From the NCBI GenBank assembly GCA_022509165.1, contig JAFLTT010000004.1, positions 145,623 through 209,622 of the forward strand: DNA of 64,000 bases. The letters run 5' to 3'. The notes below the pieces were generated by a model. It made no database searches, had not been told where the DNA came from, and saw only the letters and a list, made by a program, of their open reading frames with translations. Made by a program: the position numbers and the translations under genes. Positions 1,888 to 26,155 of this stretch are shown here, one piece after another. Positions within the stretch are counted from its first letter, which is position 1, and each line of letters starts with the position of its first letter. The stretch comes from Muribaculaceae bacterium (lineage in GTDB: Bacteria; Bacteroidota; Bacteroidia; Bacteroidales; Muribaculaceae).

Positions 1888-1981
1888 GGGGAGTCGAGTA
1901 TTTTTATCTTGTTAATTTTAGATTCTAATTTTTTTGCAGGCACCACTTTACCCGGAGGGAGCGGTGCCCTTTTATATCGGA

Positions 1982-3184: not shown

Positions 3185-3199
3185 GCCTTAAGTATTAAA

Positions 3200-3357
3200 C
3201 ATTAAATTTTTTAAACAATAAACAGTGAACAATAAACAATAAGTAGATTACTAATATCCTGCGGTAAACGAATTACGATTAACCATAAACGAGTTAGTAT
3301 TATCCTGCGGTAAACGAATTACGATTAACGAAGAACGTTTTTCGATTAACGTAAATC
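3200..3357. repeat. Degenerate heptamer/AATAAAC repeat block
   Basis: The gap between the GH32 stop and the permease start is low-complexity sequence. It has runs of AATAAACA-type units (about 3215-3243), then two copies of a unit containing TATCCTGCGGTAAACGAA followed by TTACGATTAAC (about 3256 and 3300), ending in ACG-rich degenerate copies. The GH32 stop codon lies inside the block. The same unit order recurs at 10917-11066. Confidence 0.75.
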
Positions 3358-5223: not shown

Positions 5224-5287
5224 CAAATATAATATAATAAGAATGGGGCTGCATATAACAAATGTGACTTATGATATCACAAATGTT
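5224..5287 (-). promoter_or_regulatory. Promoter and dyad operator of the GH32-permease-fructokinase operon
   Basis: Read on the minus strand, an inverted repeat with arms AACATTTGTGA (5277-5287) and TCACATTTGTT (5257-5267) and a 9-base spacer is followed 25 bases later by the -7 box TATATTTG (5224-5231). No TTTG occurs at -33, as expected of an activator-dependent promoter. The predicted start of transcription is about 30 bases before the ATG at 5190. The same arms and the same 25-base distance recur before susC1. Confidence 0.65.
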
Positions 5288-5335
5288 GGGATGCATCAAA
5301 TGTAGTGGCAAATGCAAATTTTATTATATTAAGTA

Positions 5336-5703
5336 AGAGCCCGTTCCCTAATTTATGTTAAAATTTAGGGCACATATCTCGGAGGGATTTTTAGGTTGGA
5401 TTGAAGGAGCAATGGGGTGCCATTGTGACTGAAAGCCAACATAAAAAGCACCCGAGAGATGTGGGGCAAAACTAATTTTAAAACAATTCATTTTATTTTT
5501 TCAATAGAAATTATCAACATTTATTACCAACCAGACAAGGCTCATGAGTCAGTTATGTTAAATTACCTTTGTCCGATGGTCTGCCACGCATCTTTGTCCG
5601 CTTGCGTCGGTCACAATGGAACCGCATTGCTCCCTCGCTGTGCGAACAAATCTGCATGACATCCCATCGCCTAAATTTTAACATAAATTGGGGAACGGGC
5701 TCT
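5336..5703 (+). mobile_element. MITE-like non-coding element, copy 1 (368 bp)
   Basis: The ends are inverted repeats starting AGAGCCCGTTCCC that match at 33 of 34 positions. The two halves also pair further in: GGAGCAATG...CATTGTGAC on the left recurs inverted on the right, so the element is a long imperfect palindrome around an AT-rich centre. TA dinucleotides flank both ends, which fits a TA target duplication. No credible reading frame lies inside. A second copy, inverted in the window, is at 33299-33667. It sits in the 608-base gap between the divergent GH32 operon and the HTCS gene. Confidence 0.8.
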
Positions 5704-5709
5704 TAATCC

Positions 5710-5741
5710 ATTGTGAGAAAGAGAGTTTTTATATAAATTTG
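5710..5741 (+). promoter_or_regulatory. Promoter of the HTCS gene
   Basis: The -7 box TAAATTTG (5734-5741) is preceded by ATTG (5710-5713) at a 20-base spacing, close to the Bacteroidetes TTTG/TAnnTTTG promoter. It lies just outside the MITE-like element and 57 bases before the ATG. Confidence 0.55.
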
Positions 5742-5798
5742 TAAGGTCACAACCATGAACTATTAAAATAAAGAGTTCCATATCCTGATACCTACCTA

Positions 5799-8516
5799 AT
5801 GAAACAACTTTTAAGCTACCTGACGGCTTTCATTTTCCTTTTGATTCTTGCCGGATGCCATGAAAAGAAAACCTATAAGATAGGCATATCTCAATGCAGC
5901 AGCGACGACTGGCGTGAAAAAATGAATGAAGAAGTGATGCGGGAGGCCATGCTTCACGACGATGTGCTCGTGGAAATCCGGTCGGCCCACGACGATAGCC
6001 AGGACCAGATGCAAGATATCGACTATTTTTTAGAAAATGGATTTGATATCATCTTAGTGGCCCCCAACGAAGCAAATGCACTGACTCCAAAAGTGAAAAG
6101 TGTGTATGAAAAGGGAGTGCCGGTAGTGATATTCGACCGTAATATCAACGACAGTTCCTATACCCAGCGCATAGGTGTGAACAATATAGGGCTCGGTGCC
6201 CAGGCAGCAGAATATGCAGCCTCGATTCTCCACGACAGTATCTATGCTCTGGAGATTTTCGGTCTGAAAGGTTCATCACCGGCCGAAGAACGCAGCCAAG
6301 GGTTTAGAAAGGCTCTTAGTGAAAAACGTGGAAGGGTTTTGGCTACTGCTATGGGCAACTGGCGTGAAACACTGGCTGAGTATGTGGCCGATTCCTTGCT
6401 CCGTCTATATCCCAAAACCAATGTAATTTTCGCTCACAATGACCGTATGGCTATCGGAGCATCCAAAGCCGCTGCATCTCTTGGACGCGATGATATCAGA
6501 ATCATAGGTGTGGATGCAGCTCCTCACATAGGTATAAAGGCAGTGAGTGACGGGGTGATCACCGCTACATTCCTCTATCCCACGGAGGGTCACCGGATAC
6601 TCCGCGAAGCGATCAATATCGTGAAAGGGGGTGATTTTAATAGAGAGATAGTCTTGCCCACCACTTCAGCGGTAGATTCCACCAATGCCGACATCTTGCT
6701 ACTGCAGAATGAGAATATAGAGGAGGATACAAAGAAAGTGCTGGCACTGAAGGAACAACTCGACGACTATGTAAGCCTGCACAGTGCCCAGACAGCTCTT
6801 GTATATGCAATCATAGCGATACTGCTGCTCCTTTTCGGGGTACTTTTCCTGGTACTCCGCACATTCTGGAGCCATAAACGTCACAGGGCCGCTTTGCTTT
6901 GGAAAAATAAACAACTCGAAGAGGAGAGGGACAAACAGAAGGAACTAAACGAAAGACTGGAACTGGCCACGAAGTCGAAGCTTGTATTTTTCACCAATGT
7001 GAGCCACGACCTCCGCACCCCTCTTACATTGATATCGGAACCGGTGTCACAACTCAACGGAGCCCAAAATCTTAATGACCAGCAGAAGACTCTGGTGAGG
7101 ATTGCCGACAAGAATATCAAGATTCTGCAAAGGCTGATCAACCAGATACTGGACTTTAGAAAATTTGAGATCGGAAAACTTAAATTACACCTTAAGGAGA
7201 TTGATTTCAGCAAGGTAGTGGCCGATTGGCTCGAGTCGTTTCACGCCATGGCAAAGAAACGTGACATCAAACTGGTGCTTAATGCTCCGGAAGAGCCGGT
7301 GATCCTTGCCATAGATGTGGAAAAGATGGAGAGAGTCTTCTTCAATCTTATCTCCAATGCTATGAAATATAGCCCCGACAACAGTACGATAACAGTAAGT
7401 TATGAGGTGAAGGAGAATAACTTAGTGCTGAAAGTGGCCGACACCGGAGAGGGCATATCGAAAGAGGACCTTCCCAATATATTCGACAGATTCTTCCAGG
7501 TAGACAGAGTGAGACCTACAGGAAGCGGTATAGGTCTTTCTCTCACCAAGGCGTTGATAGAACTTCATGGAGGTTCTATTTCGGTGGAAAGCGAACTGAA
7601 GAAAGGCTCCACTTTCACTGTCACACTTCCTGTGGTGCATGTGGCTGAGGAAGCTGAGGATGTCGACAAGACAATCACCTCTGAAGATGTGAAAGCGGAA
7701 TTGGACAATGTGGAGACTGACAAGACGTTTACCGACGACAAACCATTGTTGCTTGTGATCGATGATAACCGCGACATCCGGGACATGGTGACGGAATTAA
7801 TGAAGGAAGACTACAATGTGATATCGGCACCAAACGGTCAGGAGGGAATCAGGAAGGCCACGAAATATGTGCCTGACCTGGTGATATGCGATGTAATGAT
7901 GCCGGAGATGGATGGCATGGAGTGTTGCTCACGGATAAAATCGGAGACCATAACCTCACACATTCCTGTATTGATGCTCACAGCCTGCAGTTTGGATGAA
8001 CAGAGGGTTCAGGGATTTGAAAGCGGAGCCGACGGATACCTCTCCAAACCATTCTCCACATCCGTGTTGAAGGCTCAGGCTTCATCTTTGATTGCTAACA
8101 GGAAAAGAATCAAGAATGTGATGCAGAGTGGGGTGCCTTCATTAACCTCGGAGAAGAAAGAGGAAGGCAAACCGATATCCAAGTCAACGGATATAGACAA
8201 TGATTTCTACAACCGGTTCATTACTCTGTTTGAGGAAAAGATGAGTAACCCCGACCTCAATGTAGAGGCCATGGCATCCGACCTTGGTTTCGAGCGTACG
8301 CAGCTTTATAGAAAAATCAAGGCTATAACCAATTATTCTCCTGTGGAACTGATGCGCAACCTCCGACTCAAGAAGGCGAGGAGGCTTTTGAAGACCACCG
8401 ACAAGACTATAAGCGAAATCTGTTATGATGTAGGTTTCTCTACTCCGGCCTATTTCACCAAATGCTACCGTGAGCAATTTGGTGAGACACCGTCAGAGAC
8501 CCGCAACAATGCATGA
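5799..8516 (+). CDS. Hybrid two-component regulator (HTCS) with periplasmic sugar-binding sensor, BT1754-like
   Basis: This 905-residue inner-membrane regulator carries sensor, kinase, receiver and DNA-binding domains in one chain. Residues 1-20 are a signal segment ending in LAGC. Residues 25-300 resemble a periplasmic ribose-binding-type sensor (IGISQCSSDDWREKMNEE, VPVVIFDRNIND, IGVDAAPHIG). One membrane segment spans about 331-355. The HisKA H-box is VSHDLRTPL (H403), with N and G boxes near 515-600 (NLISNAMKYS, DTGEGIS). The receiver phosphoacceptor is D698 in VICDVMMPEMDG. An AraC-type HTH fills about 800-905. The periplasmic-binding-protein sensor, unlike the usual beta-propeller sensor, is the BT1754 architecture, which binds fructose. 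It likely activates the flanking fructan operons. Its 3' end overlaps the convergent MATE gene. Confidence 0.93.
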   Translation: MKQLLSYLTAFIFLLILAGCHEKKTYKIGISQCSSDDWREKMNEEVMREAMLHDDVLVEIRSAHDDSQDQMQDIDYFLENGFDIILVAPNEANALTPKVKSVYEKGVPVVIFDRNINDSSYTQRIGVNNIGLGAQAAEYAASILHDSIYALEIFGLKGSSPAEERSQGFRKALSEKRGRVLATAMGNWRETLAEYVADSLLRLYPKTNVIFAHNDRMAIGASKAAASLGRDDIRIIGVDAAPHIGIKAVSDGVITATFLYPTEGHRILREAINIVKGGDFNREIVLPTTSAVDSTNADILLLQNENIEEDTKKVLALKEQLDDYVSLHSAQTALVYAIIAILLLLFGVLFLVLRTFWSHKRHRAALLWKNKQLEEERDKQKELNERLELATKSKLVFFTNVSHDLRTPLTLISEPVSQLNGAQNLNDQQKTLVRIADKNIKILQRLINQILDFRKFEIGKLKLHLKEIDFSKVVADWLESFHAMAKKRDIKLVLNAPEEPVILAIDVEKMERVFFNLISNAMKYSPDNSTITVSYEVKENNLVLKVADTGEGISKEDLPNIFDRFFQVDRVRPTGSGIGLSLTKALIELHGGSISVESELKKGSTFTVTLPVVHVAEEAEDVDKTITSEDVKAELDNVETDKTFTDDKPLLLVIDDNRDIRDMVTELMKEDYNVISAPNGQEGIRKATKYVPDLVICDVMMPEMDGMECCSRIKSETITSHIPVLMLTACSLDEQRVQGFESGADGYLSKPFSTSVLKAQASSLIANRKRIKNVMQSGVPSLTSEKKEEGKPISKSTDIDNDFYNRFITLFEEKMSNPDLNVEAMASDLGFERTQLYRKIKAITNYSPVELMRNLRLKKARRLLKTTDKTISEICYDVGFSTPAYFTKCYREQFGETPSETRNNA

Positions 8517-9814
8517 GGCCAAGCCCATGCCAGATACACTCCACGCAGCAAAAGATAGGATAGGAAAGCAGTCCAGATTATGTAGTTGCCGGTTTCGAGG
8601 GAGAGACCTCCTCCGTCAAAATAATTGAAAAAGAGGATGCCGAAGAATATCAGGGCGCTGATGAAGGTTGAAAACATCATTCGAAAAGTGTCGGTGATGC
8701 CGATATAGAAACCGTCATATATAAAAGTCCAGCAGGATACAATGGGAATGAGGCTAATCCAGATTGTGAGTGAACCTACACCTTCCCTCACGTTGAGGCT
8801 TTCAGCGAGAAGAGAGGTGAAGAGGTCGAGGCCGAAGAAATAAAGAAGAGAGAAGGTGATTCCGGTTCCCAGTGTCCATTTCAGTAAACGTGAAGTGTAC
8901 TGTTTCAACATAGGGAAATCTCTTTCCCCGGCTTTCAGGCCTACCATTGCCTCGGCGCTGTAGGCAAATCCGTCCATAAAGAAAGAGAAGAACTGGAAAA
9001 ACTGCATTACAATCACATTCACTGCCAGAGTGAGGGTGCTGATCCGAGCTCCGAAGGCCGTAACCCCCATAGTGACACAGATAATTAAAAGGGAGCGGAG
9101 AAACAGGTTGCCGTTTACGGAAAAATATCTCAACCATTCCCCCTGTATGAGGTTGCGGAAGCTGCACCGTATGATTTTGCCCCGCAGAAACCAAAGCACA
9201 CATACCAGTGCAATTACCAGTCCGGACCAATTGGATATCAGAGTCCCCATCGCCACCCCGTTGAATCCTGAGTTAAAGCCATACACAAGCAGACAACTTG
9301 AGCCAATGTTTATGACGTTGGTGAGAATGGCTATCAGCATGGGATAATAAGTATTTTGCATGCCGACAAACCATCCGCTCACAGCAATAATGGCGAGAAG
9401 GGCCGGGGCACCCCATATTCTGATTGTGAAATAATCGAGTACGTTTTGCTTGATTTCCTCACCTGAGCCCGCAATCCACCAAAGGACGTTGAAGACAGGC
9501 CTCTGAAATATTATCAACAGGAAGCCGGCACTTCCGGCAATCAGTAGGCTACGGTAAAATACTTTTGAAATATCAAGCATTGAGCCGGCTCCCAGAGCAT
9601 TGGCAGTGAGTCCCGTAGTGCCACCACGCAAGAAACCGAAAATCCAGAATACCACATTAAGCATAACCGATCCCACCGCTATGGCGGAAAGAAAGAGTTC
9701 TGAACCCAGGTGGCCGGAAATGGCAGTATCACATATTCCCAACAGAGGTATGGTGATATTGCTTACCACTGTTGGAATACTGAGTCTTACAATTTCCCGA
9801 TTTATCCGGTCCAT
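8465..9814 (-). CDS. MATE-family multidrug/cation efflux protein (DinF-like)
   Basis: The product is 449 residues from the ATG at 9814; a TTG two codons upstream is a less likely start. The opening REIVRLSIPTVVSNITIPLLGICDTAISGHLG is the MATE/DinF N-terminus, and about 12 hydrophobic segments follow. The basic tail ends in SPNCSR. It is convergent with the HTCS gene, and their coding regions overlap by 52 bases. A MATE protein is not an expected part of a fructan locus, so it is probably a resident gene that the locus surrounds. Substrate is unknown. Confidence 0.88.
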   Translation of the reverse strand: MDRINREIVRLSIPTVVSNITIPLLGICDTAISGHLGSELFLSAIAVGSVMLNVVFWIFGFLRGGTTGLTANALGAGSMLDISKVFYRSLLIAGSAGFLLIIFQRPVFNVLWWIAGSGEEIKQNVLDYFTIRIWGAPALLAIIAVSGWFVGMQNTYYPMLIAILTNVINIGSSCLLVYGFNSGFNGVAMGTLISNWSGLVIALVCVLWFLRGKIIRCSFRNLIQGEWLRYFSVNGNLFLRSLLIICVTMGVTAFGARISTLTLAVNVIVMQFFQFFSFFMDGFAYSAEAMVGLKAGERDFPMLKQYTSRLLKWTLGTGITFSLLYFFGLDLFTSLLAESLNVREGVGSLTIWISLIPIVSCWTFIYDGFYIGITDTFRMMFSTFISALIFFGILFFNYFDGGGLSLETGNYIIWTAFLSYLLLRGVYLAWAWPHALLRVSDGVSPNCSR

Positions 9815-9911
9815 ATGCAAAAATAGTATTTTTTTGCGTATCGTGATTTTTGAAAAGCCTATTGCTGATGAGGTGAAATTTTAAGGCTCGTTCCCCAATC
9901 AAGATTAAGGC

Positions 9912-9943
9912 AGAGAGAAAGGGAGCGGTGACAAGCCGCTCCC
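9912..9943 (-). terminator. Likely terminator after the small secreted protein gene
   Basis: The 8-bp stem GGGAGCGG/CCGCTCCC (9921-9928, 9936-9943) has a 7-base loop and on the minus strand is followed by TTTCTCTCT. It lies 32 bases past the stop at 9975. The U-tract is imperfect. Confidence 0.5.
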
Positions 9944-9974
9944 TAACCCTTGATGTTGCGATAAAATATCCCTA

Positions 9975-10904
9975 CTATTTCACAACCTTCTTTATCCCAT
10001 TCTGTCCTTTAAGGATATAAATACCCCTTGACAGGCCATCAAGGGCTTTTTCTGCAGTTACATTAGAGATCACTACCCTTCCTTGGATATCGATCACGTC
10101 AACAATATCTGAGGTGGCAAAAATACTTTCCACGGCTCCTGTATCACCACTGCCGCTGTCGGCCGGATTAACGTTGGTGAGTACCACAGAAGTAATATTG
10201 AAAGGATTTCCTTCCTCTTTGTTACCTTGTATCATAAGTTGGTTCACGTCAGCCAGCATGGTGGGGAGGTCTACATTCTGCAGGTCGACAAGAGCGTATG
10301 AATTAGTCTTTACGATCTGATCGTTATTTGCCACTACAGTTTCCGGATCCCATTTTGTGAGCACCTTCATAAAATACTGGTCATACTCTCCATTATCGTC
10401 AGAGATATTGATTACCAAGTATTTCTGGCCATCATAGGCGTTGAAAGCGCTCTTAAAGATTTCGAGTGTTTTCCATTCGTCTACCCAGAAATATCCACCC
10501 CAGATTGCATCCTGCGGCATCTGGAATCCATCGTTGCAGATGGATACTTCACTTACTGTGAAGTTGGCGCCACAGAGTTCAAGACCTGTGGATTGAAGTG
10601 CAGCTTTGCCGGCTTCAGTAATATAGCATCTGAGATCGGGCATACCTTCGCCCAGCCAGGTGAATACACTGCCGGGGAGCCATGTACCGTCAGATTTAAG
10701 TTCGATTACATCAGTGGTATTGGAGAAAGTGATGTAGATATAATCACCGGTTTCCACTTCAGTAAACTTTTCGGCGGGAATCATAAGGGTATTGTCCCAT
10801 GATACGTTGAAATTTCCTGTAAACAGGGAAGCCACTACATCTTGTGCGAATAATGAAGCACTACCCAAAATAGCGGCACAAAGTGAAAGTAAAGGTTTTT
10901 TCAT
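9975..10904 (-). CDS. Secreted repeat protein with type IX-like C-terminal sorting module
   Basis: I do not recognise a named family. The start at 10904 (309 residues) is chosen because the signal peptide KKPLLSLCAAILGSASLFA begins there. Two modules of about 120 residues share an alternating pattern: LFTGNFNVSWDNTLMIP with GDYIYITFSN, then IWGGYFWVDEWKTLEIF with GQKYLVINISDD. Both suggest beta-sandwich glycan-binding folds. The last 60 residues (VESIFA...DVIDIQGRVV...LSRGIYILKG...KKVVK) are a typical type A C-terminal sorting module. It lies between the MATE gene and the susC1 operon and has a terminator on each side, so it is a separate transcript. A fructan-binding accessory role is a guess from location. 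Confidence 0.7.
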   Translation of the reverse strand: MKKPLLSLCAAILGSASLFAQDVVASLFTGNFNVSWDNTLMIPAEKFTEVETGDYIYITFSNTTDVIELKSDGTWLPGSVFTWLGEGMPDLRCYITEAGKAALQSTGLELCGANFTVSEVSICNDGFQMPQDAIWGGYFWVDEWKTLEIFKSAFNAYDGQKYLVINISDDNGEYDQYFMKVLTKWDPETVVANNDQIVKTNSYALVDLQNVDLPTMLADVNQLMIQGNKEEGNPFNITSVVLTNVNPADSGSGDTGAVESIFATSDIVDVIDIQGRVVISNVTAEKALDGLSRGIYILKGQNGIKKVVK

Positions 10905-10916
10905 TTTAATTAGATT

Positions 10917-11066
10917 TAAAAAACAATAAACAATGAACAATAAACAATAAGTAGAATGCTATAATACAGCGAATTACGAATTACGAATCGCGAATCACGA
11001 ATTACGAAAAACGCTAAACATAGTATTATCCTGCGATAAACGATAAACGATTAACGATAAACGTTT
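10917..11066. repeat. Degenerate heptamer/AATAAAC repeat block, second copy
   Basis: It begins with AACAATAAACAATGAACA-type units, continues through ATTACGA/ATCGCGA heptamers, then TAGTATTATCCTGCGATAAA and further TAAACGA units. The order of units is the same as at 3200-3357. It fills the gap from just before the ATG at 10904 to the terminator after the upstream GH32 gene. Confidence 0.75.
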
Positions 11067-11067
11067 T

Positions 11068-11099
11068 TGAAAACATGCAGGGTTCACACCCTGCATGTT
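11068..11099 (-). terminator. Terminator of the susC1 operon
   Basis: The perfect 12-bp arms AACATGCAGGGT/ACCCTGCATGTT (11072-11083, 11088-11099) enclose a 4-base loop, followed on the minus strand by a short TTTTC tract. It lies 13 bases past the GH32 stop at 11112. Confidence 0.65.
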
Positions 11100-11111
11100 C
11101 TCAAAAATGGA

Positions 11112-12641
11112 TTATTTCTTGCTTACAGTGAGATTGGAGATACGGATATCGCCACCGTAAGAGTTTATGCTCCAACTGTTTCTTGCGCTATTGTATATGC
11201 GGGTAGTCTGAGCCACATTATCATTGATGTACATAGTCACCACAGAGTTGTCGATAGTGATGGTTACATTGTATACACCATCGGCAGGAGCTGCGAAATT
11301 ATATCCATCGTTGTCAGGTATGAAACCACGGCCGCCCTCTTCCTCGAAATTGATTTTACGACGAGTCTCTGATTCCGGATTCACAATCAAAGAATAATAT
11401 GTGTCGGAGTCATCTCCACGTCCGAAGGAAACACCAAACTTATCCCAAGGGTTGGAAGTAGTGACAGTGAAGGAGATTCTGTTTTCTACACCGAGGCGCG
11501 GCATGAGTTTGTAGGCTTCGCCATTAAGAGCGAAATCAGCGTAAGCGGTACCGTTACCGAACTTTGAAGCAATACCCGGCACTTCACCCAGTGAGAGAGT
11601 TCCGTCTGCGTGCTGGATGAGTTTATGCATCACGAGGTTGCCGGCCCATCCATAAGCATTGGTATTGATGTTGCCCGGACGGTTTGCACACCATCCCCAT
11701 ACATAGCGGTCGGTACCGTTGGAAGCAGTCTTGGCAGCATAAAGGCCTCTTGAATCCAGGAAACCCTCATGGTCATCTGGCCAGATGCCGGCGTCATCCT
11801 TGGTGCAGGCTTTAAGGTCGTCGAGAGTGCGACCCTTGAAGTATTGTACCTTTCTGAGAGCATTGTGCATCTCAGAATAGATAAGGTACCACCAGTCGCC
11901 CATCTTGAAGATATCGGGGCACTCATAGAAACGGTCCCACATCATTGTCATGAATACACCTTCAGAATTCCAGTTGTGAAGGTCGGTAGAAGTATACTCT
12001 GCAAGCACACCTTTACCATTCTGCTTGGTGGATACCAGCATGTGGAATTTGTTGTCGTCTCCTTTGAATACTATAGGATCGCGGAAATCTACATCTGAGT
12101 ATTCGCCGCTACCGGTGAGAAGAAGATTGCGGTCTTTTTCCCAGTTGCGGAAGTCGGAAGAAGTGGCAAGCATCACTGCCTCGTTGAGACCGCCTGTGAT
12201 GGCAGGACGGTAAGAGTGTCCGGTGTAGAATGTGTAGTACACCCCGTCGTGATAGATTGTAGAGCCTGTGCCCGGAGCCATATCCATTTCAGAAGAGCTT
12301 CCTGTAGGTATCAGTTCGCCTAAAGAAGTGTAGGAAGAACCATCTTTAGTGCTCAGACCCCAGATAGGGTGGTGGCAGAAAATATCATTGTTGGGATACT
12401 CCTGGAGGTAAAGAATCTTGAAATCCTGAGCCACCGGATCGTAGAAAGGCATCGGGTCGCCTACGGTGCCTACAGTGGGCTTGAAATAGATATCCTGCTT
12501 GGCTTCATCCGGTGACGCAAGGAAAGTAGTGGTATTATCAAAGTCTTTGTTGGTGATGACCGGCTCATCGTTGCTGCAGGCTCCCAAAGAGAGGGAGGCT
12601 GCACCCAACAAAAGCATATTAAATATCATATTATATTTCAT
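11112..12641 (-). CDS. Surface GH32-family lipoprotein (endo-fructanase candidate)
   Basis: This 509-residue protein has a lipoprotein signal (LLLGAASLSLGACSNDE, lipidated Cys22), with acidic residues just after the Cys as in surface-exposed Bacteroidetes lipoproteins. The five-bladed propeller motifs are present but divergent: GDPMPFYD (nucleophile D62) replaces WMNDPNG, RDP is at 187-189, and YECPDIF holds acid/base E240. A C-terminal beta-sandwich follows (DNSVVTMYINDN). It is the last gene of the susC1 operon, the place of the BT1760 surface endo-levanase. Endo-cleavage of levan or inulin before import is inferred. The altered first motif could mean a different linkage or mainly binding. 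Confidence 0.82.
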   Translation of the reverse strand: MKYNMIFNMLLLGAASLSLGACSNDEPVITNKDFDNTTTFLASPDEAKQDIYFKPTVGTVGDPMPFYDPVAQDFKILYLQEYPNNDIFCHHPIWGLSTKDGSSYTSLGELIPTGSSSEMDMAPGTGSTIYHDGVYYTFYTGHSYRPAITGGLNEAVMLATSSDFRNWEKDRNLLLTGSGEYSDVDFRDPIVFKGDDNKFHMLVSTKQNGKGVLAEYTSTDLHNWNSEGVFMTMMWDRFYECPDIFKMGDWWYLIYSEMHNALRKVQYFKGRTLDDLKACTKDDAGIWPDDHEGFLDSRGLYAAKTASNGTDRYVWGWCANRPGNINTNAYGWAGNLVMHKLIQHADGTLSLGEVPGIASKFGNGTAYADFALNGEAYKLMPRLGVENRISFTVTTSNPWDKFGVSFGRGDDSDTYYSLIVNPESETRRKINFEEEGGRGFIPDNDGYNFAAPADGVYNVTITIDNSVVTMYINDNVAQTTRIYNSARNSWSINSYGGDIRISNLTVSKK

Positions 12642-12662
12642 AGGATTAAAATTTAGGGGGGA

Positions 12663-14027
12663 TTACTGGCAAAGATAGTTGATTGCGTTTCTTGTCAGAT
12701 TTATCATATTGCTCTGATAAGGATTCTCAGCGTGGTTGGGATCGAACCATTCGAAAGCGGGTGAACCGATAACGATAACGCGTCCCGACATGAAACCTTT
12801 GAGAGCTTCTCTGGGTTCAAACTCAGCGATAGTGACGCAGTTGGGATCATAATCATGGCTTGAAGCCAGAGCTGTAGCACCTGTGCGTTCTTCCCATCCT
12901 GTCATTCCTCCGTATGGCTCCCAGTCTACAAACCATTGCAGAGTACGGTTGGATGAAGCGTTTCCGGTAGCCTTGAGAAGGATACGATTGTCAGCATCAG
13001 TTTCGATACCATCGTAGAGAGGATGTCCTTCATGTCCCGTGATTGTAAATCCTAAGTCATGATCGAGGTCTTCGAAACCTTCACCGCCGAACGGGTTGTT
13101 GGGACCTTGTTGGTCGAGAGTAATACGCCAAACGTCGTTGATATATCTTGCACCGTCGCGAGTGGCAAGGATAGCTCCACCGCGCAGCCAGTAACCGTTG
13201 ACTAAGTCGCGTGAATCCCACATAAAGCTTGGCCAGTCGAGGAAATCAAGGTGACACCAGATCATCTTATAGTCGTCGAGTTTTGCTTTGTTGTCGATCA
13301 GATCCTGGAAGGAAATGAGCACTGTGTTCGGCACATTTTCCATCATCCAGGTATAAGCAGCTTTTGCTTCATCACCGAGAGCATCGTAAGAATTGGTGTT
13401 GGCCACAAATGCTTTAGGCGACTGATCCATGTCATCCTGCACTACATAAGCTGTATAGACTATTTTGGCAGACTTATGGGTGGCAGTGAATTCCACCGGA
13501 TTGCTGAAGTCAAGCATAGAGCCGGATGCCGGAGTAACTTCTGTGTCTTCATTTACCGTGAAGGTAACGAGCATTGACTCGATATTAGCGGTATAGGGCA
13601 CATATACACGTATGCTTCTGTCGTCGTTGTTGATTGTGCCGGAATACAGACCGTCAAGTTCGAATGAAAGGAACTCTACCTGATCATGGATAGTGGTAAG
13701 AGTATAGTCGGTGTGCACATCGCCATTCTTCACATGGATGTTGCGAGGCACAAGACCATTGAAAGTTTCGCCTACATTGAGGTCGCTCACAGCACCTGCG
13801 CTCAGTTTCATAGCATCCACCTTAAGGGCTGAGAGGTCGGTCTCCACCGGTAATTCCACCTTGACAGTGTGCGCGTATTTGTCGATAAGACCTTCTATCC
13901 CGTTGATGGTGATAGACTCGATTACAGTGTCGCCGTCAAGATTCAGATGAGTCGAGTCATCTTTACATGAAGCCATCACCCCGGTGAGAAGAAGGCTCAT
14001 GAATATATATTTTATATTAGTTTTCAT
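12663..14027 (-). CDS. Surface glycan-binding lipoprotein, DUF4960 type (BT1761-like)
   Basis: The product is 454 residues with lipoprotein signal LLLTGVMASCKDD. Residues 25-200 are two beta domains of the DUF5018 kind (VIESITINGIEG, VEFLSFELDGLYSGTI). The C-terminal half, from about 205, is an alpha/beta domain ending in GRVIVIGSPAFEW...NLTRNAINYLCQ, typical of DUF4960 proteins found beside SusD in fructan loci. It has no enzyme motif I can identify. It lies 20 bases after susD1 and 21 before the GH32 lipoprotein. The probable role is capture of levan or inulin at the cell surface. Confidence 0.82.
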   Translation of the reverse strand: MKTNIKYIFMSLLLTGVMASCKDDSTHLNLDGDTVIESITINGIEGLIDKYAHTVKVELPVETDLSALKVDAMKLSAGAVSDLNVGETFNGLVPRNIHVKNGDVHTDYTLTTIHDQVEFLSFELDGLYSGTINNDDRSIRVYVPYTANIESMLVTFTVNEDTEVTPASGSMLDFSNPVEFTATHKSAKIVYTAYVVQDDMDQSPKAFVANTNSYDALGDEAKAAYTWMMENVPNTVLISFQDLIDNKAKLDDYKMIWCHLDFLDWPSFMWDSRDLVNGYWLRGGAILATRDGARYINDVWRITLDQQGPNNPFGGEGFEDLDHDLGFTITGHEGHPLYDGIETDADNRILLKATGNASSNRTLQWFVDWEPYGGMTGWEERTGATALASSHDYDPNCVTIAEFEPREALKGFMSGRVIVIGSPAFEWFDPNHAENPYQSNMINLTRNAINYLCQ

Positions 14028-14047
14028 TTTTAGCGATGATTAAACGA

Positions 14048-15784
14048 TTACCAGTTGCCGATATTCTGTACGTAGTTGCCATTTGAGGCGCTGATCTGAG
14101 AGAAAGGAATAGGGAGGTATTCATTCTTGTCGGCAGTGAAAGAAGCAGCCGAGTAGATAGGACAATCGTCAGTTTCCTCCACATAGTATTTGTTGAGCAC
14201 CTGTGCTGCTTCACCCCATCTCACGAGATCGAAGAAACGCTGACTTTCCATAGCCATTTCAAGACGACGCTCGAATTTCACCATTTTCAGGAGGTCCATG
14301 GCTGAGTAGCCGCCCGGCTGATAGGTTTTCACTTTCATTCTTACGCCATATTCTCTTTCATAGTCGGAAATCATAGCAAGGCTCTGATTGGCACGGGTTC
14401 TGAGAGAGTTGATTATCTCCAGTACTTCGGGAAGGTTTTGACCGAGTTGGGCCAGAGCTTCAGCACGCATGAGCATGATGTCGGCATATCGGAGCACAAT
14501 AAGATTCATCGGATTGCCCCACCAGAGACCGCCACGGATATTGTATTCGGTATCCGGGTCTACATTTTGCTTGAGAGTAATGTAGTAACCGTAGGTACCG
14601 TTGCTACGGCTCCAGGTAGCGGTGTGGTCAATGATGTAATTCTTGTTGAACATATACGGAGTGCCGGGCATACCTACAGTGAGGAAGAGGCGCGGGTCGG
14701 CATAGTCGTTGGCCATGTCATAGTCTTTAGAATTGAAGTCATCCAGATACGGCAGGCCGTTTTCATCAGTCTTGAAAGCATTCACCAGATTCTGGGTCGG
14801 CTTGTAGAAGTCGCAGCCACCATCAGTGACACCGGGGATAGCCGGGAGGATAAGACCGTAAGACCAGTTGCAGTTGCCTTCAGGAGTTCCATCATTGAAA
14901 GAGTATTGCATTGCCCAGATAGATTCCGGACCGTTTTCATATTGAGGTTCAGGACGGAAATTGTTGTGAAGATCTGTGTCGAGATGAAATCCGGCTGCAG
15001 TATATATTGTCGGGTCAGAATATTTCACCACCATATTCAGGTCTTCCTGGTTGATTGAAGTCACCTGATGTGACTCGGGGTTGTCCTGACGGTAAGCCTT
15101 ATAAAGATAAGTCTTGGCAAGGTAAGCGGCCGCAGCAGCCTGTGAAGGGCGACCTACAGAAGCCTGTTTTACAGGAAGATTGTTGTAGGCAAATTCGAAA
15201 TCATCGATGATTAGTTGCCAGCCTTCATCATTAGTATAAGTGTTGTTCTTAAGGTTGTTGTAACCATCCTGCGAGAGGTTTTCGTCGATGATGAAAGGGA
15301 TGTTCTTGTAAAGACGCTTCAGGAGGAAATGTCCGTGAGCACGGAGGAATCTCATTTCAGCCTTACGGGTTTCAAGTAGAGGATAAGATGATGCATCCAT
15401 CATATCGAGCACCTGCAGTGCAGTGTTGGCACGGGAGATACAGTTGTAAAGACGCTGCCACATGTCAGAGATGTTCCAGGCCTCGGTCTGTATGCCCTGA
15501 GAAATTTCAAGGTTGTGGAATACACCACCGTCGTCGGGGCCGCTTCCACCCTTGTAAGCATCGTCTGACCTTACATCATAGTTCCACATCGAGAAGGAAG
15601 AGTTGATATCCTCAGAAGTGATCCAGATGGCGTAAGCCGAGATGATGAGGTTGTCGATATAGGCGGGGTTGAGCACCTGCTCCTCGTCGAGCACACCCTG
15701 AGGTTTCTGCTCATCAAGAAAGTCGTTGCAGCTTGTTGCCATGAGCAAGGAAAGAAGAGCTGCGGCGTATATTTTTGCTTTCAT
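14048..15784 (-). CDS. SusD/RagB family outer-membrane lipoprotein (susD1)
   Basis: The product is 578 residues with lipoprotein signal LLSLLMATSCNDFLDEQKP; the Cys-N-D-F-L-D start is typical of SusD. The FLRAHGHFLLKRLYKNIPF helix near residue 150 and the C-terminal NEYLPIPFSQISASNG segment are SusD family marks. It would form the lid of the susC1 channel and bind fructan oligosaccharides. Twenty bases separate it from susC1 and from the downstream binding protein, so all are one transcript. Confidence 0.93.
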   Translation of the reverse strand: MKAKIYAAALLSLLMATSCNDFLDEQKPQGVLDEEQVLNPAYIDNLIISAYAIWITSEDINSSFSMWNYDVRSDDAYKGGSGPDDGGVFHNLEISQGIQTEAWNISDMWQRLYNCISRANTALQVLDMMDASSYPLLETRKAEMRFLRAHGHFLLKRLYKNIPFIIDENLSQDGYNNLKNNTYTNDEGWQLIIDDFEFAYNNLPVKQASVGRPSQAAAAAYLAKTYLYKAYRQDNPESHQVTSINQEDLNMVVKYSDPTIYTAAGFHLDTDLHNNFRPEPQYENGPESIWAMQYSFNDGTPEGNCNWSYGLILPAIPGVTDGGCDFYKPTQNLVNAFKTDENGLPYLDDFNSKDYDMANDYADPRLFLTVGMPGTPYMFNKNYIIDHTATWSRSNGTYGYYITLKQNVDPDTEYNIRGGLWWGNPMNLIVLRYADIMLMRAEALAQLGQNLPEVLEIINSLRTRANQSLAMISDYEREYGVRMKVKTYQPGGYSAMDLLKMVKFERRLEMAMESQRFFDLVRWGEAAQVLNKYYVEETDDCPIYSAASFTADKNEYLPIPFSQISASNGNYVQNIGNW

Positions 15785-15804
15785 TATATTCTCTGTGTTT
15801 TAAA

Positions 15805-18800
15805 TTAGAATGTAAGATTAAGACCAAAGGTGAGATTGGTTGAAATCGGGTAACCGAAGTTGGGGTTCTCCGGGTCGAGTCCGGTGAAGCTCTTACTGTG
15901 GATAGTAAGAAGGTTCTGGGCGCTCACATAGAATCTGAGTCTTGAGATTCTGATTTTTTCAGTGAGTTTTGAAGGAAGCACGTAACCAAACTGGATGTTG
16001 CGGAGTTTCAGGAACGAACCGTTTTCCACAAAGTAAGTAGACATAGCGTGTTCGTGGTTTGTGTCGCTGTTTGAGAGAGCCGGGATTGTAGAATTAGGAT
16101 TCTGCGGAGTCCAGGCATCGAGCACACGGTTACCTTTATTGAAACCACCCACGGTTGTTGCACTCCATAAGTCGGTGTTGCTCTTCATATCAAGCACGAG
16201 CGCGTCGTTGCCTTGAGAACCTTGCCAGAACATTGTGAAGTCGAAGTCACGATACTGGAGGTAAACGTTGAGACCATAGGTGAAATCGGGTGTCGGGTCG
16301 TAGATCCATGTACGGTCTTTCTCATTGATGATACCGTTGCCGTCAAGGTCTCTCCAGCGGATACGGCCTACGCCTGCACCTTCCTGGATAGCATGGTTGT
16401 TGACTTCATCCTGCGACTTGAAGATACCGTCGGCTACATAACCTGCCTGTGAGTAAATCGGGTGACCGATTACGCTGAACTGGCCGTCGCCACCAAATTG
16501 TCCTGTAGCTGCCACTGTAGCCGGCATATAGGTGATTTTGTTGCGGTAGGATGAGATATTACCTGTCACTTCATAAGTGAATCCGTAGGAAGTGGTGTTG
16601 CGGAATCCGAGTGTAAGCTCGAGACCTTTGTTTTCCACGTCGCCGGCGTTGATCCATTGAGATGAACCTTCACCCATTGCAGCGATACCTACCATATTCA
16701 CGAGGATATCTGAGGTCTTCTTGTAGTAGATATCGAAGTTACCGAAGAGTCGTGAATTCAGGAATGAGAAGTCAAGACCGAGGTTATACTGAGTAGTAGT
16801 TTCCCATTTGATGTCGGGGTTACCGATTTGCTGACGCTTGAAGCCGGAAGGCAGGAGCGAACCACCGTTGGTACCGTCGATATCATAGGAAGTTCCGTAA
16901 GTCTGACCACCGCTCGAGAAGTTACCGTAATTAGGCACGAAGATATAGTAGCGTGCAAGGTTGTTGATTTCCTGGTTACCGGTCTGACCCCATGAAGCAC
17001 GGAGCTTAAGATCTGAAATCCAGGTGATGTCGTGCATGAATTTCTCCTGGTTGATACGCCATCCTAAAGAAACTGAAGGGAAGGTAGCCCAACGGTTGTT
17101 AGGACCGAAACGTGAAGAACCGTCATAACGTAGAGTAAGTCCGAGGAGATATCTTGAATCATAAGAATAATTTATCTTAGCGAAGAAAGAAGCGAGAGAG
17201 TATCCTTCACCTCTACCTGTTACCAGTGAGGAACCGACGCCGGCATCCGGCCACATATAGTCGGGGTTGAGGATTGCGAAGTCTTCTTTGTAGCCTGAGA
17301 ACCAGTCAGTGTTTTCGCGGATAAGCTCCATACCGGCCAGTGCATCGATGTGGTTTCTCTTTTCATAACCGAATTCTACGTTATAGTTGGCCACAAGGTT
17401 CCACATCCATTTTGTCCAGTGCTCCTGAATCATAGTCACCGCATTAATGGTGGCTCCGTTTTCAGATTCGGGGAGACGGAAGTTTCTTTGCTGTTTCTGA
17501 GAGTAGTCGAGACCGAAAGTGGTGCGGATATTCAGGCCTGTGAAAGGTACCACGTTAATATAAGCGTCACCAAACATTCTCCAGAATTTGTATCTGTTGT
17601 TCTTGTTACGGTAGAGCTGAGCCACCGGGTTTTGGTGAGTCTGGTCATAGCCTTCGGGTGCGCCTGCGAATTCACCGAGAGAATCGTAAACCGGTACAGT
17701 AGGATAGAATTCCAATGCACTTCTGAGGAAATCGCCCGGAGAAGCCACTTCGTCGGTGTGGTTTACAGTAAAGTGTTCGCCGATTGTGAGCACCTTGTTG
17801 AAGGGTTTGTATTCAGTATTAATACGTGCTGAGAATCTTTCAAAATCAGTGTCTTTGATCACACCGAGATTTTTGTAGTAACCCAGTGAGAAGTATGAGC
17901 TTATCTTATCGGTACTTCCGCTCACTGAGAAGTTATAGTTCTGAACAAAACCTGTGCGTGTTGTTTCATCTACCCAGTCAGTGTCGCCTGCCTGGAGGGT
18001 CTGAGCCTGGTCGAGATATTTTTTCATCCCCACAGAATAAAGTACCGGATAACCGGAAGCGTCATAACCCCAATTATAGCTGAATCCGCGAGAGTTGTTG
18101 TTGGGATCGTTGCCGTCGTTTACAGCAGCCTGCCACAAAGCGCGGCCGTATTGTTCAGAGTTAAGCACCTTAAGTCTGTGGTTGTAGAATTCTGCAGCTA
18201 CAGAAGCGTCGAGAGTCACCTTCAGGTCGTTACCTTTCTTGGTGGTGATGATGATTACACCGTTGGCTGCTCGTGAACCATAGATAGAAGCCGAAGCGGC
18301 GTCTTTAAGAATCTGCATAGATTCGATGTCGCCCGGATTGAGTTCGTGAAGTCCGCTCTTGGTAGGAACACCGTCGATCACGTAGAGAGGGTCGTTGTTG
18401 TTGAGAGTACCGACACCACGTATTCTCACGGTGGCTGAACCGCTGGGGTTACCGTCGGCAGAGATGTTCATACCCGGTACACGTCCCTGGAGGGCCTTCA
18501 TTGGGTTGTTTTCGTTTTGCTTTGCAAGATCTGAAGCGCTTACAGTAGAGATGGCGCCGGTTACGTCAGCTTTCTTCTGAGTAGAGTAACCTACTACCAC
18601 CACTTCATCGAGCACTTCGGAGTTTTCAGAAAGCTTTATGTCCATTTGCGGCATGGCTACGCCTTCAAAATCTTGGTAACCTACATAGGAAACCCTGATT
18701 TTTGTACCGGATGGAACACTAAGCTCGAAATTACCGTCGATATCGGTTGCTGTGCCTTTCTTGGTTTCAAGCGACATTACTGTCGCTCCTATTAAAGGTT

Positions 18801-18906
18801 CGCCGTCTTGTGCGGATATGACCGTGCCTTGGACGAGGATGTCTTCTGCTTTAATTGTCAAAGTTGCCATTAGGAGAACCAAGGAACTTAATAAAAACTT
18901 TTTCAT
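15805..18906 (-). CDS. SusC/RagA TonB-dependent outer-membrane transporter (susC1)
   Basis: This 1033-residue protein has a signal peptide (KKFLLSSLVLLMATLTIKA), a carboxypeptidase-like regulatory domain (VQGTVISAQDGEPLIGATV) at about 25-95, a TonB box region LDEVVVVGYSTQKKADVTGA at about 100, a plug with DPLYVIDGVPT and LKDAASASIYGSRAANGVI, and a 22-strand-type barrel ending in LTFGLNLTF. It is first in the four-gene fructan operon with susD1, a binding lipoprotein and a GH32 lipoprotein. Substrate assignment to fructan rests on these neighbours and the HTCS. It shares the plug motifs with susC2 but differs clearly in the barrel. Confidence 0.95.
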   Translation of the reverse strand: MKKFLLSSLVLLMATLTIKAEDILVQGTVISAQDGEPLIGATVMSLETKKGTATDIDGNFELSVPSGTKIRVSYVGYQDFEGVAMPQMDIKLSENSEVLDEVVVVGYSTQKKADVTGAISTVSASDLAKQNENNPMKALQGRVPGMNISADGNPSGSATVRIRGVGTLNNNDPLYVIDGVPTKSGLHELNPGDIESMQILKDAASASIYGSRAANGVIIITTKKGNDLKVTLDASVAAEFYNHRLKVLNSEQYGRALWQAAVNDGNDPNNNSRGFSYNWGYDASGYPVLYSVGMKKYLDQAQTLQAGDTDWVDETTRTGFVQNYNFSVSGSTDKISSYFSLGYYKNLGVIKDTDFERFSARINTEYKPFNKVLTIGEHFTVNHTDEVASPGDFLRSALEFYPTVPVYDSLGEFAGAPEGYDQTHQNPVAQLYRNKNNRYKFWRMFGDAYINVVPFTGLNIRTTFGLDYSQKQQRNFRLPESENGATINAVTMIQEHWTKWMWNLVANYNVEFGYEKRNHIDALAGMELIRENTDWFSGYKEDFAILNPDYMWPDAGVGSSLVTGRGEGYSLASFFAKINYSYDSRYLLGLTLRYDGSSRFGPNNRWATFPSVSLGWRINQEKFMHDITWISDLKLRASWGQTGNQEINNLARYYIFVPNYGNFSSGGQTYGTSYDIDGTNGGSLLPSGFKRQQIGNPDIKWETTTQYNLGLDFSFLNSRLFGNFDIYYKKTSDILVNMVGIAAMGEGSSQWINAGDVENKGLELTLGFRNTTSYGFTYEVTGNISSYRNKITYMPATVAATGQFGGDGQFSVIGHPIYSQAGYVADGIFKSQDEVNNHAIQEGAGVGRIRWRDLDGNGIINEKDRTWIYDPTPDFTYGLNVYLQYRDFDFTMFWQGSQGNDALVLDMKSNTDLWSATTVGGFNKGNRVLDAWTPQNPNSTIPALSNSDTNHEHAMSTYFVENGSFLKLRNIQFGYVLPSKLTEKIRISRLRFYVSAQNLLTIHSKSFTGLDPENPNFGYPISTNLTFGLNLTF

Positions 18907-18944
18907 GTAAGGATGTTAGGATTGGTAAATTGATAATTTGGCCG

Positions 18945-19045
18945 CAAAATTATATTATGTATAGAGGGGTAATCTACAACAATTGTGGATTAAATTATAA
19001 ATTTTGCGATATGCAACAAGTGTGATACGGAATACAACATTTGTT
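18945..19045 (-). promoter_or_regulatory. Promoter and operators of the susC1 operon
   Basis: Read on the minus strand, a dyad with arms AACAAATGTTG (19035-19045) and TCACACTTGTT (19015-19025), spacer 9, lies upstream. A further half-site CCACAATTGTT (18978-18988) is followed 25 bases later by the -7 box TAATTTTG (18945-18952). No TTTG sits at -33. Arm sequence, spacer and the 25-base distance match those before the GH32 operon. Confidence 0.65.
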
Positions 19046-19704
19046 GGTCGTGCAGGGAAAAACCGTTGATGTTGTCTGCAAAAAAATTCTTGGGTGTGTT
19101 TTGGTAAGGATTAGGATTAGAGGAGAGCATAAAATAATAATGAATATTTTTAGGTTAGAACCAACTTATAAACAAGCCTTTGAAATTTTTATTGTTAGAC
19201 TTTTTAAAGAGGGAATAGGAATTATATAATATTAAGATTGATTGAGATTTAGAGTCAATTTTATTCAAATTTTAACAAGTAGAAAAATGCCTCTCGGAGG
19301 TCCTTTTTAAGCCGAGAAAATTGATAAATTGGCTTGTGTATTTTACAATCTGCCGGCATAATGAAATAGTGAGTGGCAAAATTCCAAACCCCGGTTTCTA
19401 ATGATTAAAAAATGAGGGGATAATCTTTAAAATTTTGACCTACAAAATGACGTGAAAACTCATGTCAACTTGGCACAAGAATGTCGCCTATGGCGAATGA
19501 ACAGTAGCCCTATCGGATATTTGTAGTCTTTTCAAAAAGCACTTGGTTTAAGCAATGGGAATTCAAAGACAAAAAATATTTATGGTATTTTAAGTAAAAT
19601 ATGCTTTAAAACATAAAAATCCGGGTGAAAATGGGTGAAGGATTGTTAAAAACGTTGCAATTTCTATTAAAATTGATGAAAGGATAATTTATTATAGTCT
19701 CTTC
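19046..19704. other. AT-rich intergenic stretch between divergent susC genes
   Basis: There is no credible gene. One 62-codon open frame exists at 19041-19229, but it lacks a recognisable motif and overlaps the operator. I see only AT-rich sequence and a short TCGCC/GGCGA palindrome near 19484. A long untranslated leader or small RNA could hide here, but nothing in the sequence demonstrates one. Confidence 0.4.
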
Positions 19705-19746
19705 AACAAATGTGATAACTCTAATAATTAATAGGATATAATTTCG
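19705..19746 (+). promoter_or_regulatory. Candidate promoter and operator half-site of the susC2 operon
   Basis: AACAAATGTGA (19705-19715) is identical to the GH32 operator arm but in the opposite orientation relative to transcription. The near-consensus -7 box TAATTTCG (19739-19746) follows after 23 bases. I find no partner arm at the 9-base spacing, so this is a half-site only. Confidence 0.5.
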
Positions 19747-22700: not shown

Positions 22701-22837
22701 TAGAAAATGTGTTCACAATGACCAAATATAAAGGATTAGATCCCGAAATCATCCCCGGTGACTGGAGTCAGTTGTACGATACCGGTGCATATCCTCGTCC
22801 CCGTTCATTCTCTATGGGTGTAAATGTAACCTTCTAA
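19781..22837 (+). CDS. SusC/RagA TonB-dependent outer-membrane transporter (susC2)
   Basis: This 1018-residue protein has a signal peptide ending in GLAAQAQ, a carboxypeptidase-like domain (VQGTVVSRADDEPLIGATI), a TonB box region LDEVVVIGYQTIRKADLTGA, plug motifs DPLYIVDGVAT and LKDAASASIYGSRAANGVV, and a barrel ending SFSMGVNVTF. It starts the second four-gene uptake operon, divergent from susC1, with an ATG preceded by a long A/T-rich leader. Fructan is inferred from the downstream DUF4960-type and GH32 genes. Having two SusCD systems suggests two fructan linkages or chain lengths. Confidence 0.95.
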   Translation: MKKVILGATMAILTGLAAQAQDITVQGTVVSRADDEPLIGATIMCNETHKGTATDIDGQFTIMVPEGSSLTITYIGYQPKTLPAEPKMMIYLDEDSAILDEVVVIGYQTIRKADLTGAVSVMDMKEPLSQNTGNVLNSMAGKLPGVNIVPDSKPGGGGSIRVRGMSTANSSNDPLYIVDGVATSEGLNGINPSDIESLQVLKDAASASIYGSRAANGVVIITTKHGKGDRINVSLNYSISAQTIAKRYKMLDTEGWGQAWWIAQSNAGLTPPGNPKIENIYGNGTTPQLQKYLNGDPNFPVANTDWQDELYHTAWTNNLTATITNNSEKSSVLFSLNYINQDGNIKDTYYRRYSARVNSRFDFNKYITVGENLMVSYWKDRAPGVGGDRGAAVLALEMLPAMPVKGLNGEWANPMTLLGVDYANPMWALYNDRDDNTTSWRIFGNAFLEVKPIEGLTLKSNIGIEHIQFLARDLSRTMNENDKTYASNSYGQGDTWTWTNTAAYNNVFKDVHHVSALLGVEAIQYTNKTLDATRQGYVSQDEQFMQVGAGTTVWGAGGGKSAWSVFSVFGKVDYNYDDRYLASFTIRHDENSRFAKNHRGGTFPAFSLAWRPSAEPWFPKNDVLADFKVRYSWGQNGNANIRDLYPVYTTYNYGRANGAYDMEGTGNGSTSGITRAYTGNPDLTWETTTQNNIGVDLSFLGGSINLSGDFYIKKTKDMLTMPPVLNVAGENAGVWMNTGAMKNIGWEVSLGYTSPYYGDFTWSGNINISQYKNKLEYLNSSDNFLGGDYRLIPGQPMGVYWGYVCDGIFQNEAEVANHATQTGAAPGRLMYRDLNGDGVINDDDRCIIGNPNPDLSLGLNLAFKYKGFTLDMFFAGDFGQDIYNGMKRILYLMSSNLNVVNRASDIVEKAWTPNNPSATIPALTTMDTNNEQRFSSWYIENGSYMKMKYLKLSYSLPEKCLEKWAKSLDVFFQVENVFTMTKYKGLDPEIIPGDWSQLYDTGAYPRPRSFSMGVNVTF

Positions 22838-22863
22838 TCTTTCACCACCTAAAACTGATAAAA

Positions 22864-26145: not shown

Positions 26146-26155
26146 ACGTTAATAC

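What the first reader, a model, noticed from the sequence alone, without database searches (positions are those of the whole stretch)
5224..19746. Shared dyad operator with fixed geometry in front of two fructan operons: candidate HTCS binding site
Minus-strand dyads have arms AACATTTGTGA and TCACATTTGTT at 5257-5287, and AACAAATGTTG and TCACACTTGTT at 19015-19045. Both have a 9-base spacer, so arm centres are 20 bases (two helical turns) apart. Near each promoter an arm (5257-5267; 18978-18988) stands exactly 25 bases from a perfect TAnnTTTG -7 box, and both promoters lack the -33 TTTG. This is what an activator that replaces -33 contact would need. The only transcription factor in the locus is the HTCS at 5799-8516.
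Basis: partly seen in the sequence, partly recalled or inferred. Interest (0 to 1): 0.75.

Follow-up and report, generated by a model that had tools for sequence, protein, structure and literature searches.

The report
Paired fructose-sensor operators in gut bacterium
The repeated DNA signal in front of these sugar-digestion genes is real, but it is not a simple mirror-image site: it is half of a larger control switch, made of two back-to-back tandem repeats set at fixed distances from the promoters, most likely the landing site of a fructose-sensing regulator and shared by many related gut bacteria.

Summary
The two sites exist as stated, and their exact pattern occurs nowhere else in the 2.59-Mb genome. 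The dyad reading is wrong: footprinting 24 loci gives an asymmetric half-site repeated DIRECTLY at 21 bp, the layout published for HTCS regulators. Most of these direct repeats stand in head-to-head pairs offset 36-37 bp (four half-sites, about 75 bp): 51 of 58 catabolic promoters. The window has three such operators: 5254-5328, 18975-19048, 19644-19717, before GH32-MFS-fructokinase, susCD1 and susCD2. The promoter geometry is right and general: a -7-type box 21-22 nt after the facing repeat in 50 of 51 paired catabolic promoters; none of these 50 has a -33 TTTG. At HTCS promoters the box lies about 12 bp closer (19 of 25). The likely binder is the BT1754-like HTCS, the only HTCS-sized HTH_18 frame found in the genome; binding is inferred. 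The direct repeat is a known kind. I found no description of the mirrored doubling and two promoter registers (searches).

The parts
5254..5291 (-).
   Evidence: 23.4 bits with a matrix trained without the window; own-genome model hit E=0.025
5291..5328 (+). Operator 1, opposed direct repeat facing the HTCS side; offset 37
   Evidence: 28.2 bits; own-genome model hit E=0.016
5224..5231 (-). TATATTTG -7-type box, 22 nt after the facing repeat
18975..19012 (-). Operator 2, weak direct repeat facing susC1; contains the near arm 18978-18988
   Evidence: 11.9 bits, offset 36 to its partner; not among the model hits
19011..19048 (+).
   Evidence: 19.5 bits; own-genome model hit E=0.088
18945..18952 (-). 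TAATTTTG -7-type box, 22 nt after the facing repeat
19644..19681 (-). Operator 3, direct repeat facing away from susC2; best model hit in the genome
   Evidence: 33.1 bits; E=6.2e-4
19680..19717 (+). Operator 3, direct repeat facing susC2, offset 36
   Evidence: 18.2 bits; model hit only E=3.6
19739..19746 (+). TAATTTCG, imperfect -7-type box 21 nt after the facing repeat
   Evidence: the one exception in 51 paired catabolic sides
5799..8516 (+). Hybrid two-component regulator, BT1754-like (Peripla_BP_4, HisKA, HATPase_c, Response_reg, HTH_18), proposed binder
1006..5190 (-). Operon 1: GH32 (3346-5190), MFS transporter (1982-3184), PfkB kinase (1006-1887)
   Evidence: Pfam
11112..18906 (-). 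Operon 2: susC1, susD1, DUF4960 protein, BT1760-like GH32
   Evidence: Pfam
19781..28581 (+). Operon 3: susC2, susD2, DUF4960 protein, Laminin_G_3-GH32
   Evidence: Pfam
5334..5705 (.). MITE-like element with 36-bp terminal inverted repeats between operator 1 and the HTCS gene

Best explanation
Each fructan promoter carries a composite operator for the fructose-sensing HTCS: two 38-bp direct repeats (each two AraC-type half-sites, about TGCAACATTTtTtATA, 21 bp apart) set head to head with a 36-37-bp offset. Inferred mechanism: periplasmic fructose drives phosphorylation of the HTCS receiver and frees its DNA-binding domains. One HTCS dimer fills one direct repeat, so two dimers fill an operator. 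The repeat facing the promoter ends near -33 and replaces the missing -33 contact, activating transcription from the TAnnTTTG box 21-22 nt on. The opposed repeat, usually the better-scoring one at susC, helps load or stabilise the complex. On the HTCS side the same operator sits about 12 bp closer to the -7 box and overlaps the -33 region, which suggests basal or self-limiting expression of the regulator. Shown: architecture, conservation, spacing, rarity in the genome. Inferred: the binder, its stoichiometry, the direction of regulation.
For: Unconstrained 38-bp motif search in 24 upstream regions: 26.3 bits (40 restarts) against 13.3-13.9 in 8 shuffled sets (8 restarts each). Direct over inverted in 23 of 23 by matrix. 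Of 97 opposite-strand partners of 84 strong repeats in 35 loci, 71 lie at 36-37 bp among 241 offsets; in 43 distant loci one strong repeat and no partner. Pairs before 26 of 27 operon-1 GH32 genes and 25 of 31 susC genes; 56 pairs in 36 of 37 loci, 49 at offset 37 and 7 at 36. Box at 21/22 nt in 26 of 26 paired GH32 sides and 24 of 25 paired susC sides (susC sides were not used in training; boxes were not used in choosing sites); boxes at other offsets 7 of 3967 positions. Own genome: the four best model hits all lie in this locus (150 of 2204 first-look candidates scored). One HTCS-sized HTH_18 frame among 5. In print: HTCS motifs are direct repeats averaging 21 bp, with an HTCS_Fru regulon for BT1754 (PMC3878776, abstract and passages); HTCS DNA binding depends on phosphorylation (PMC11253607, abstract and passages).
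Against: No binding or expression data for this organism. 7 of 58 catabolic promoters lack a pair above threshold: 3 susC pairs fall just short at offset 37 (23.8-25.9 bits), one scores 19.1, and 3 promoters (L007 susC1, L096 susC, L027 GH32) have a single facing repeat. L012 has two HTCS genes and no operator, though no GH32 or susC was detected in its 15 kb either. Outside the group only 3 distinct sites in 34 fetched (partly overlapping) loci show the pair, one marginal; L116 with a B. thetaiotaomicron-like gene order shows one repeat. The single-repeat model alone is not specific: 7 of 17 related genomes without the HTCS have an unpaired hit at E<=0.05. The susC1-facing repeat here is weak and the susC2 box imperfect; 6 of 25 HTCS sides, this window's included, lack the 8-10-nt box. 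The strongest published BT1754 ChIP-seq peak is the 3' region of the BT1754 gene (PMC3404733, passages), not plainly a promoter.
Confidence: 0.8

Rival explanations
1. One reading: one HTCS dimer on an 11-bp dyad with 9-bp spacer, shared by two promoters.
For: Arms are partly self-complementary (ACAnnTGT), so an inverted reading scores 9/11 and 8/11; by plain identity 3 of 23 relatives' sites look more inverted than direct.
Against: Direct orientation preferred by matrix in 23 of 23 loci; the two 'dyads' stand in different positions relative to their promoters.
Confidence: 0.04
2. Only the promoter-facing direct repeat matters; the opposed repeat is a leftover from divergent promoters or serves the HTCS gene alone.
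For: Facing repeat scores higher at GH32 promoters (35.1 v 21.0 bits mean; part of that is training bias). Three promoters of relatives and a locus with Bacteroides-like gene order show a single facing repeat.
Against: At susC operators the opposed repeat is kept and scores higher in 21 of 25. 30 of 33 sides with no identified gene have no box, the other 3 lying at contig ends, yet the register is fixed.
Confidence: 0.3
3. Another regulator (a different AraC protein or a Crp-like global factor) binds the operator.
For: Four other HTH_18 matches in frames of 284-297 aa exist, one below the family cut-off. Unpaired model hits occur in 7 of 17 related genomes without the HTCS, one of them (G001, E 0.002) about 600 bp upstream of a glycogen debranching gene.
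Against: Pairs at 36-37 bp were found in 14 of 24 genomes with the HTCS and 0 of 17 without (only loci returned for 30 of 51 hits examined; confounded by kinship). The published Crp-like palindrome TATGTTnTAnAACATA has a different shape. The four best own-genome hits are in the fructan locus.
Confidence: 0.12

Closest known systems
HTCS_Fru (BT1754) regulon of Bacteroides thetaiotaomicron, predicted in PMC3878776
   Same: Direct repeat, about 21-bp period, fructan genes including inner-membrane transporter and kinase, PBP-type fructose sensor
   Different: Here mostly a head-to-head pair of direct repeats with a fixed 36-37-bp offset and two promoter registers. The passages I read give no such pairing ('divergent' and 'inverted repeat' occur 0 times in the main text); its motif letters are in a figure and supplements not open to me
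AraC-family direct-repeat operators (general; PMC9723621 seen only in a search listing)
   Same: AraC-type DBD on direct repeats; proximal site overlapping the -35-type region (class II activation, recalled)
   Different: Membrane-tethered, pre-dimerised regulator; Bacteroidetes -33/-7 promoter; mirrored second repeat

Membership tests
Hybrid two-component system (HTCS) | Periplasmic sensor, HisKA, HATPase, receiver and AraC-type HTH in one chain | tested here: met
   Pfam
Hybrid two-component system (HTCS) | S/CHIP motif in receiver alpha3-beta4 loop | tested here: met
   SHIP in the receiver sequence; motif definition from PMC11253607 passages. The D/K partner residues were not checked
BT1754-type fructose HTCS | PBP-type sensor like PDB 2x7x | tested here: met
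   phmmer E 6.4e-74 over 306 residues; that 2x7x is the BT1754 sensor is recalled
BT1754-type fructose HTCS | Binds fructose | not testable with these tools
   none
HTCS operator (direct repeat, about 21 bp) | Two half-sites in the same orientation at 21 bp | tested here: met
   weaker margin by plain identity
HTCS operator (direct repeat, about 21 bp) | Bound by the cognate HTCS | not testable with these tools
   none
HTCS_Fru motif of PMC3878776 | Same motif letters as published | not tested
   logo and site list are in figure/supplement, not available
Dyad (inverted-repeat) operator | Arms in inverted orientation | tested here: not met
   23 of 23 loci favour direct by matrix

The most novel reading that the evidence does not exclude
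The fructose HTCS works as a dimer of dimers on a mirrored four-half-site operator. The opposed repeat is a loading site, and the same 75-bp module sets two outputs by distance alone: activation when the -7 box is 21-22 nt away, basal or repressed expression of the regulator when it is 9-10 nt away. A fourth operator before a glycogen debranching gene would tie fructose sensing to glycogen use.
Probability: 0.4. Interest if true: 0.65.

Novelty: new variant of a known kind. Interest (0 to 1): 0.5.

Why it matters
HTCS proteins are a main class of regulators of glycan use in gut Bacteroidetes, but how a membrane-held, already dimeric regulator engages promoters is little understood. A conserved operator with exact spacings in tens of genomes makes stoichiometry, class of activation and autoregulation directly testable. 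It also gives a sharp signature (pair at 36-37 bp plus box at 21-22 nt) for finding further regulon members, sharper than the single repeat, which alone also hits genomes without the HTCS.

Tried and rejected
Dyad model: rejected. Scan of the exact ACANNTGT pattern in 33 relatives found one site only (3 with one mismatch), because relatives keep a looser T-rich half-site; de novo motif search was needed. A degenerate pattern with 3 mismatches in the own genome was no better than its reversed control (86 v 110 matches) and was dropped. L041 was left out of the training set because its site was cut by the chosen window; it was recovered later at offset 37. The group of near loci was fixed by HTCS identity before pairs were counted, except L034 (42%), which I added after its pair had shown; without it the count is 35 of 36 loci. 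L033 (45%) and L035 (38%) were in neither group and had no hit above 11 bits; L033 is among the 34 other loci, L035 is not. Hymenobacter, Flavobacterium and other distant loci (43) gave no pairs. A marine xylan paper (PMC12125979) proved in passages to concern a Vibrio XylR, not an HTCS. Of the weak own-genome hits, L087 and L088 have no strong pair; L089 and L090 were not tested for one, and four further hits were not fetched.

Full report
OBSERVATION. The arms, spacers and boxes named in the finding are in the sequence. The pattern ACANNTGT-N13-ACANNTGT occurs in the 2,588,025-base, 97%-complete genome at exactly those two places, with 0 matches for the reversed pattern. So the element is real and rare.

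CONTEXT. The region is a fructan utilisation locus. Minus strand: PfkB kinase, MFS transporter, GH32. Plus strand: HTCS. Minus strand: susC1, susD1, DUF4960 protein, BT1760-like GH32. Plus strand: susC2, susD2, DUF4960 protein, Laminin_G_3-GH32. The HTCS sensor matches PDB 2x7x (E 6.4e-74; that this entry is the BT1754 sensor domain is recalled) and its receiver-DBD matches the HTCS structure 12aw. HTH_18 matches five places in the genome; one lies in a frame of HTCS size (914 aa), the others in frames of 284-297 aa, one of them below the family cut-off. The nearest named relatives are mostly Muribaculaceae; that the window is too is my inference. Some of their records carry other titles (Porphyromonadaceae, Bacteroides, Clostridiales, Staphylococcus bins), so I speak of a group defined by HTCS similarity.

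FOOTPRINT. Upstream regions of the operon-1 GH32 gene in the window and 23 relatives were searched for one 38-bp motif with no symmetry imposed. The best motif holds 26.3 bits (40 restarts) against 13.3-13.9 for eight dinucleotide-shuffled sets (8 restarts each). Its consensus, ATnCAACATTTTTnATAnnnnATGCACnATTTTTTATA (22 sites without the window), is one half-site repeated in the same direction at 21 bp. Left-arm matrices score right arms at 12.4 bits direct (best of 3 shifts) and -0.1 bits for the best of 17 inverted registers, direct winning in 23 of 23. Plain identity agrees less sharply: 11.0 v 8.4 of 17, with 3 loci the other way and one tie. This is the layout reported for HTCS regulators: direct repeats averaging 21 bp, with a regulon HTCS_Fru for BT1754 (PMC3878776, abstract and passages only).

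PAIRING. A matrix trained without the window finds in it not two but six repeats, in three mirrored pairs: 5254-5291(-)/5291-5328(+), 18975-19012(-)/19011-19048(+), 19644-19681(-)/19680-19717(+). Around 84 repeats of at least 18 bits in 35 loci, 97 opposite-strand partners of at least 10 bits were found over 241 offsets; 71 lie at 36 or 37 bp, and 15 more at 16 or 58, which are one-half-site slips. In 43 distant loci there is one such repeat and no partner, and no pair sum of 26 bits or more at these offsets in 878 kb. Counting pairs of summed score at least 26 with neither below 3, 36 of 37 loci of the group have one or more (missing: L012; L034 was added to the group after its pair was seen): 56 pairs, 49 at offset 37 and 7 at 36. 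By promoter: 26 of 27 operon-1 GH32 genes and 25 of 31 susC genes have a pair in 420 bp upstream. Of the seven misses, four are sub-threshold pairs at offset 37 (19.1-25.9 bits) and three have a single facing repeat of 24.7-29.1 bits. In 33 relatives, pair sums of at least 34 occur 39 times at offset 37, 4 times at 36 and at most 3 times at any other offset from 20 to 55.

PROMOTER GEOMETRY. T[AT]nnTTTG starts 21 or 22 nt after the facing repeat in 26 of 26 paired GH32 sides (14 and 12) and in 24 of 25 paired susC sides (10 and 14), the susC sides being independent of training; the exception is susC2 of this window, TAATTTCG at 21. Boxes at other offsets: 7 in 3967 positions, three of these being boxes at 21 on sides cut by a contig end. 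A TTTG with a spacer of 17-23 nt is absent in 50 of 50. On HTCS sides the box starts at 8, 9 or 10 nt in 19 of 25 (1, 5, 13), the six others including this window; 17 of these 19 also lack the -33 TTTG. That places the operator over the -33 region of the HTCS promoter; the BT1754 promoter of B. thetaiotaomicron is reported as weak, constitutive and not fructose-responsive (PMC3404733, passages). Repression of the HTCS gene is my inference. That the Bacteroidetes promoter has -33 TTTG and -7 TAnnTTTG is recalled.

GENOME-WIDE. A sequence model of the 22 relatives' sites (R1; rough E-values) searched against the own genome gives 14 hits at E<=10 (150 of 2204 first-look candidates scored). The four best are one repeat each of operators 3, 1, 1 and 2 (E 6e-4, 0.016, 0.025, 0.088); the next is E 0.3. 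That fifth hit is of interest: it has a partner at offset 37 (23.3 and 11.3 bits) and TACCTTTG exactly 21 nt on, before a glycogen debranching enzyme gene, though it overlaps the end of the preceding frame. In relatives, a repeat of at least 15 bits turned away from this gene is seen in 7 of 22 own-genus genomes (own included) whose start could be placed, three of them with little upstream sequence; all 7 have the HTCS, and 0 of 3 without it show one. Only the own genome has both repeats. Against a simple link, G001, a genome of another family without the HTCS, has an unpaired hit about 600 bp before the same gene. It stays a lead. In 41 related genomes, a pair at 36-37 bp was found in 14 of 24 with an HTCS (own included) and 0 of 17 without; only loci returned for 30 of 51 hits were examined, and kinship confounds this. 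Unpaired hits at E<=0.05 occur in 7 of the 17 without, so the single repeat is not specific. These genomes may overlap in species with the loci.

BEYOND THE GROUP. In 34 other fetched loci of the order, some overlapping, pairs passed the threshold at 3 distinct sites (G292 seen twice as L098/L119, G109, and marginally G182), and some loci carry single repeats; L116, which continues an HTCS-PfkB-MFS-GH32-GH32-DUF4960-susD-susC order like that of BT1754-BT1763 (recalled), has one repeat facing susC. The pair is therefore largely a feature of this group as far as seen here.

MECHANISM. One HTCS dimer per direct repeat, as proposed in print for the direct repeat alone, means two dimers per operator; 36-37 bp is about 3.5 helical turns, so the two repeats would lie on opposite faces and could be filled together. 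The facing repeat ends near -33 and can replace that contact. Stoichiometry, cooperativity and the role of the opposed repeat are inference. Published ChIP-seq shows BT1754 at its own locus, most strongly at the 3' region of its gene (PMC3404733, passages), which neither proves nor excludes the model.

PRINT. Searches over the open-licence library listed no paper that I could see describing mirrored HTCS repeats; I read passages of five papers only (PMC3878776, PMC11253607, PMC3404733, PMC5061871, PMC12125979), and subscription papers and all supplements were outside my reach, so absence is not proven.

Noticed in passing
window 5334-5705: MITE-like element (36-bp terminal inverted repeats, 97% complementary) between operator 1 and the HTCS gene, so the gene starts 471 bp from the operator (30-132 bp in the other 24 scored HTCS sides). 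Near-full 94% copies at window about 33298-33669 and on contig 36; 31 matches in the genome including end fragments.
   Followed up: partly
window 5734-5741: TAAATTTG, a possible new -7 box for the HTCS gene downstream of the element, uncoupled from the operator.
   Followed up: no
L086 1498-1572 (G000:C34 about 24594-24668): Candidate fourth operator with pair offset 37 and TACCTTTG box at 21 nt before a glycogen debranching enzyme gene.
   Followed up: partly
L012: Two HTCS genes (62% and 48% identity) without any composite operator, GH32 or susC detected in the 15-kb locus.
   Followed up: no
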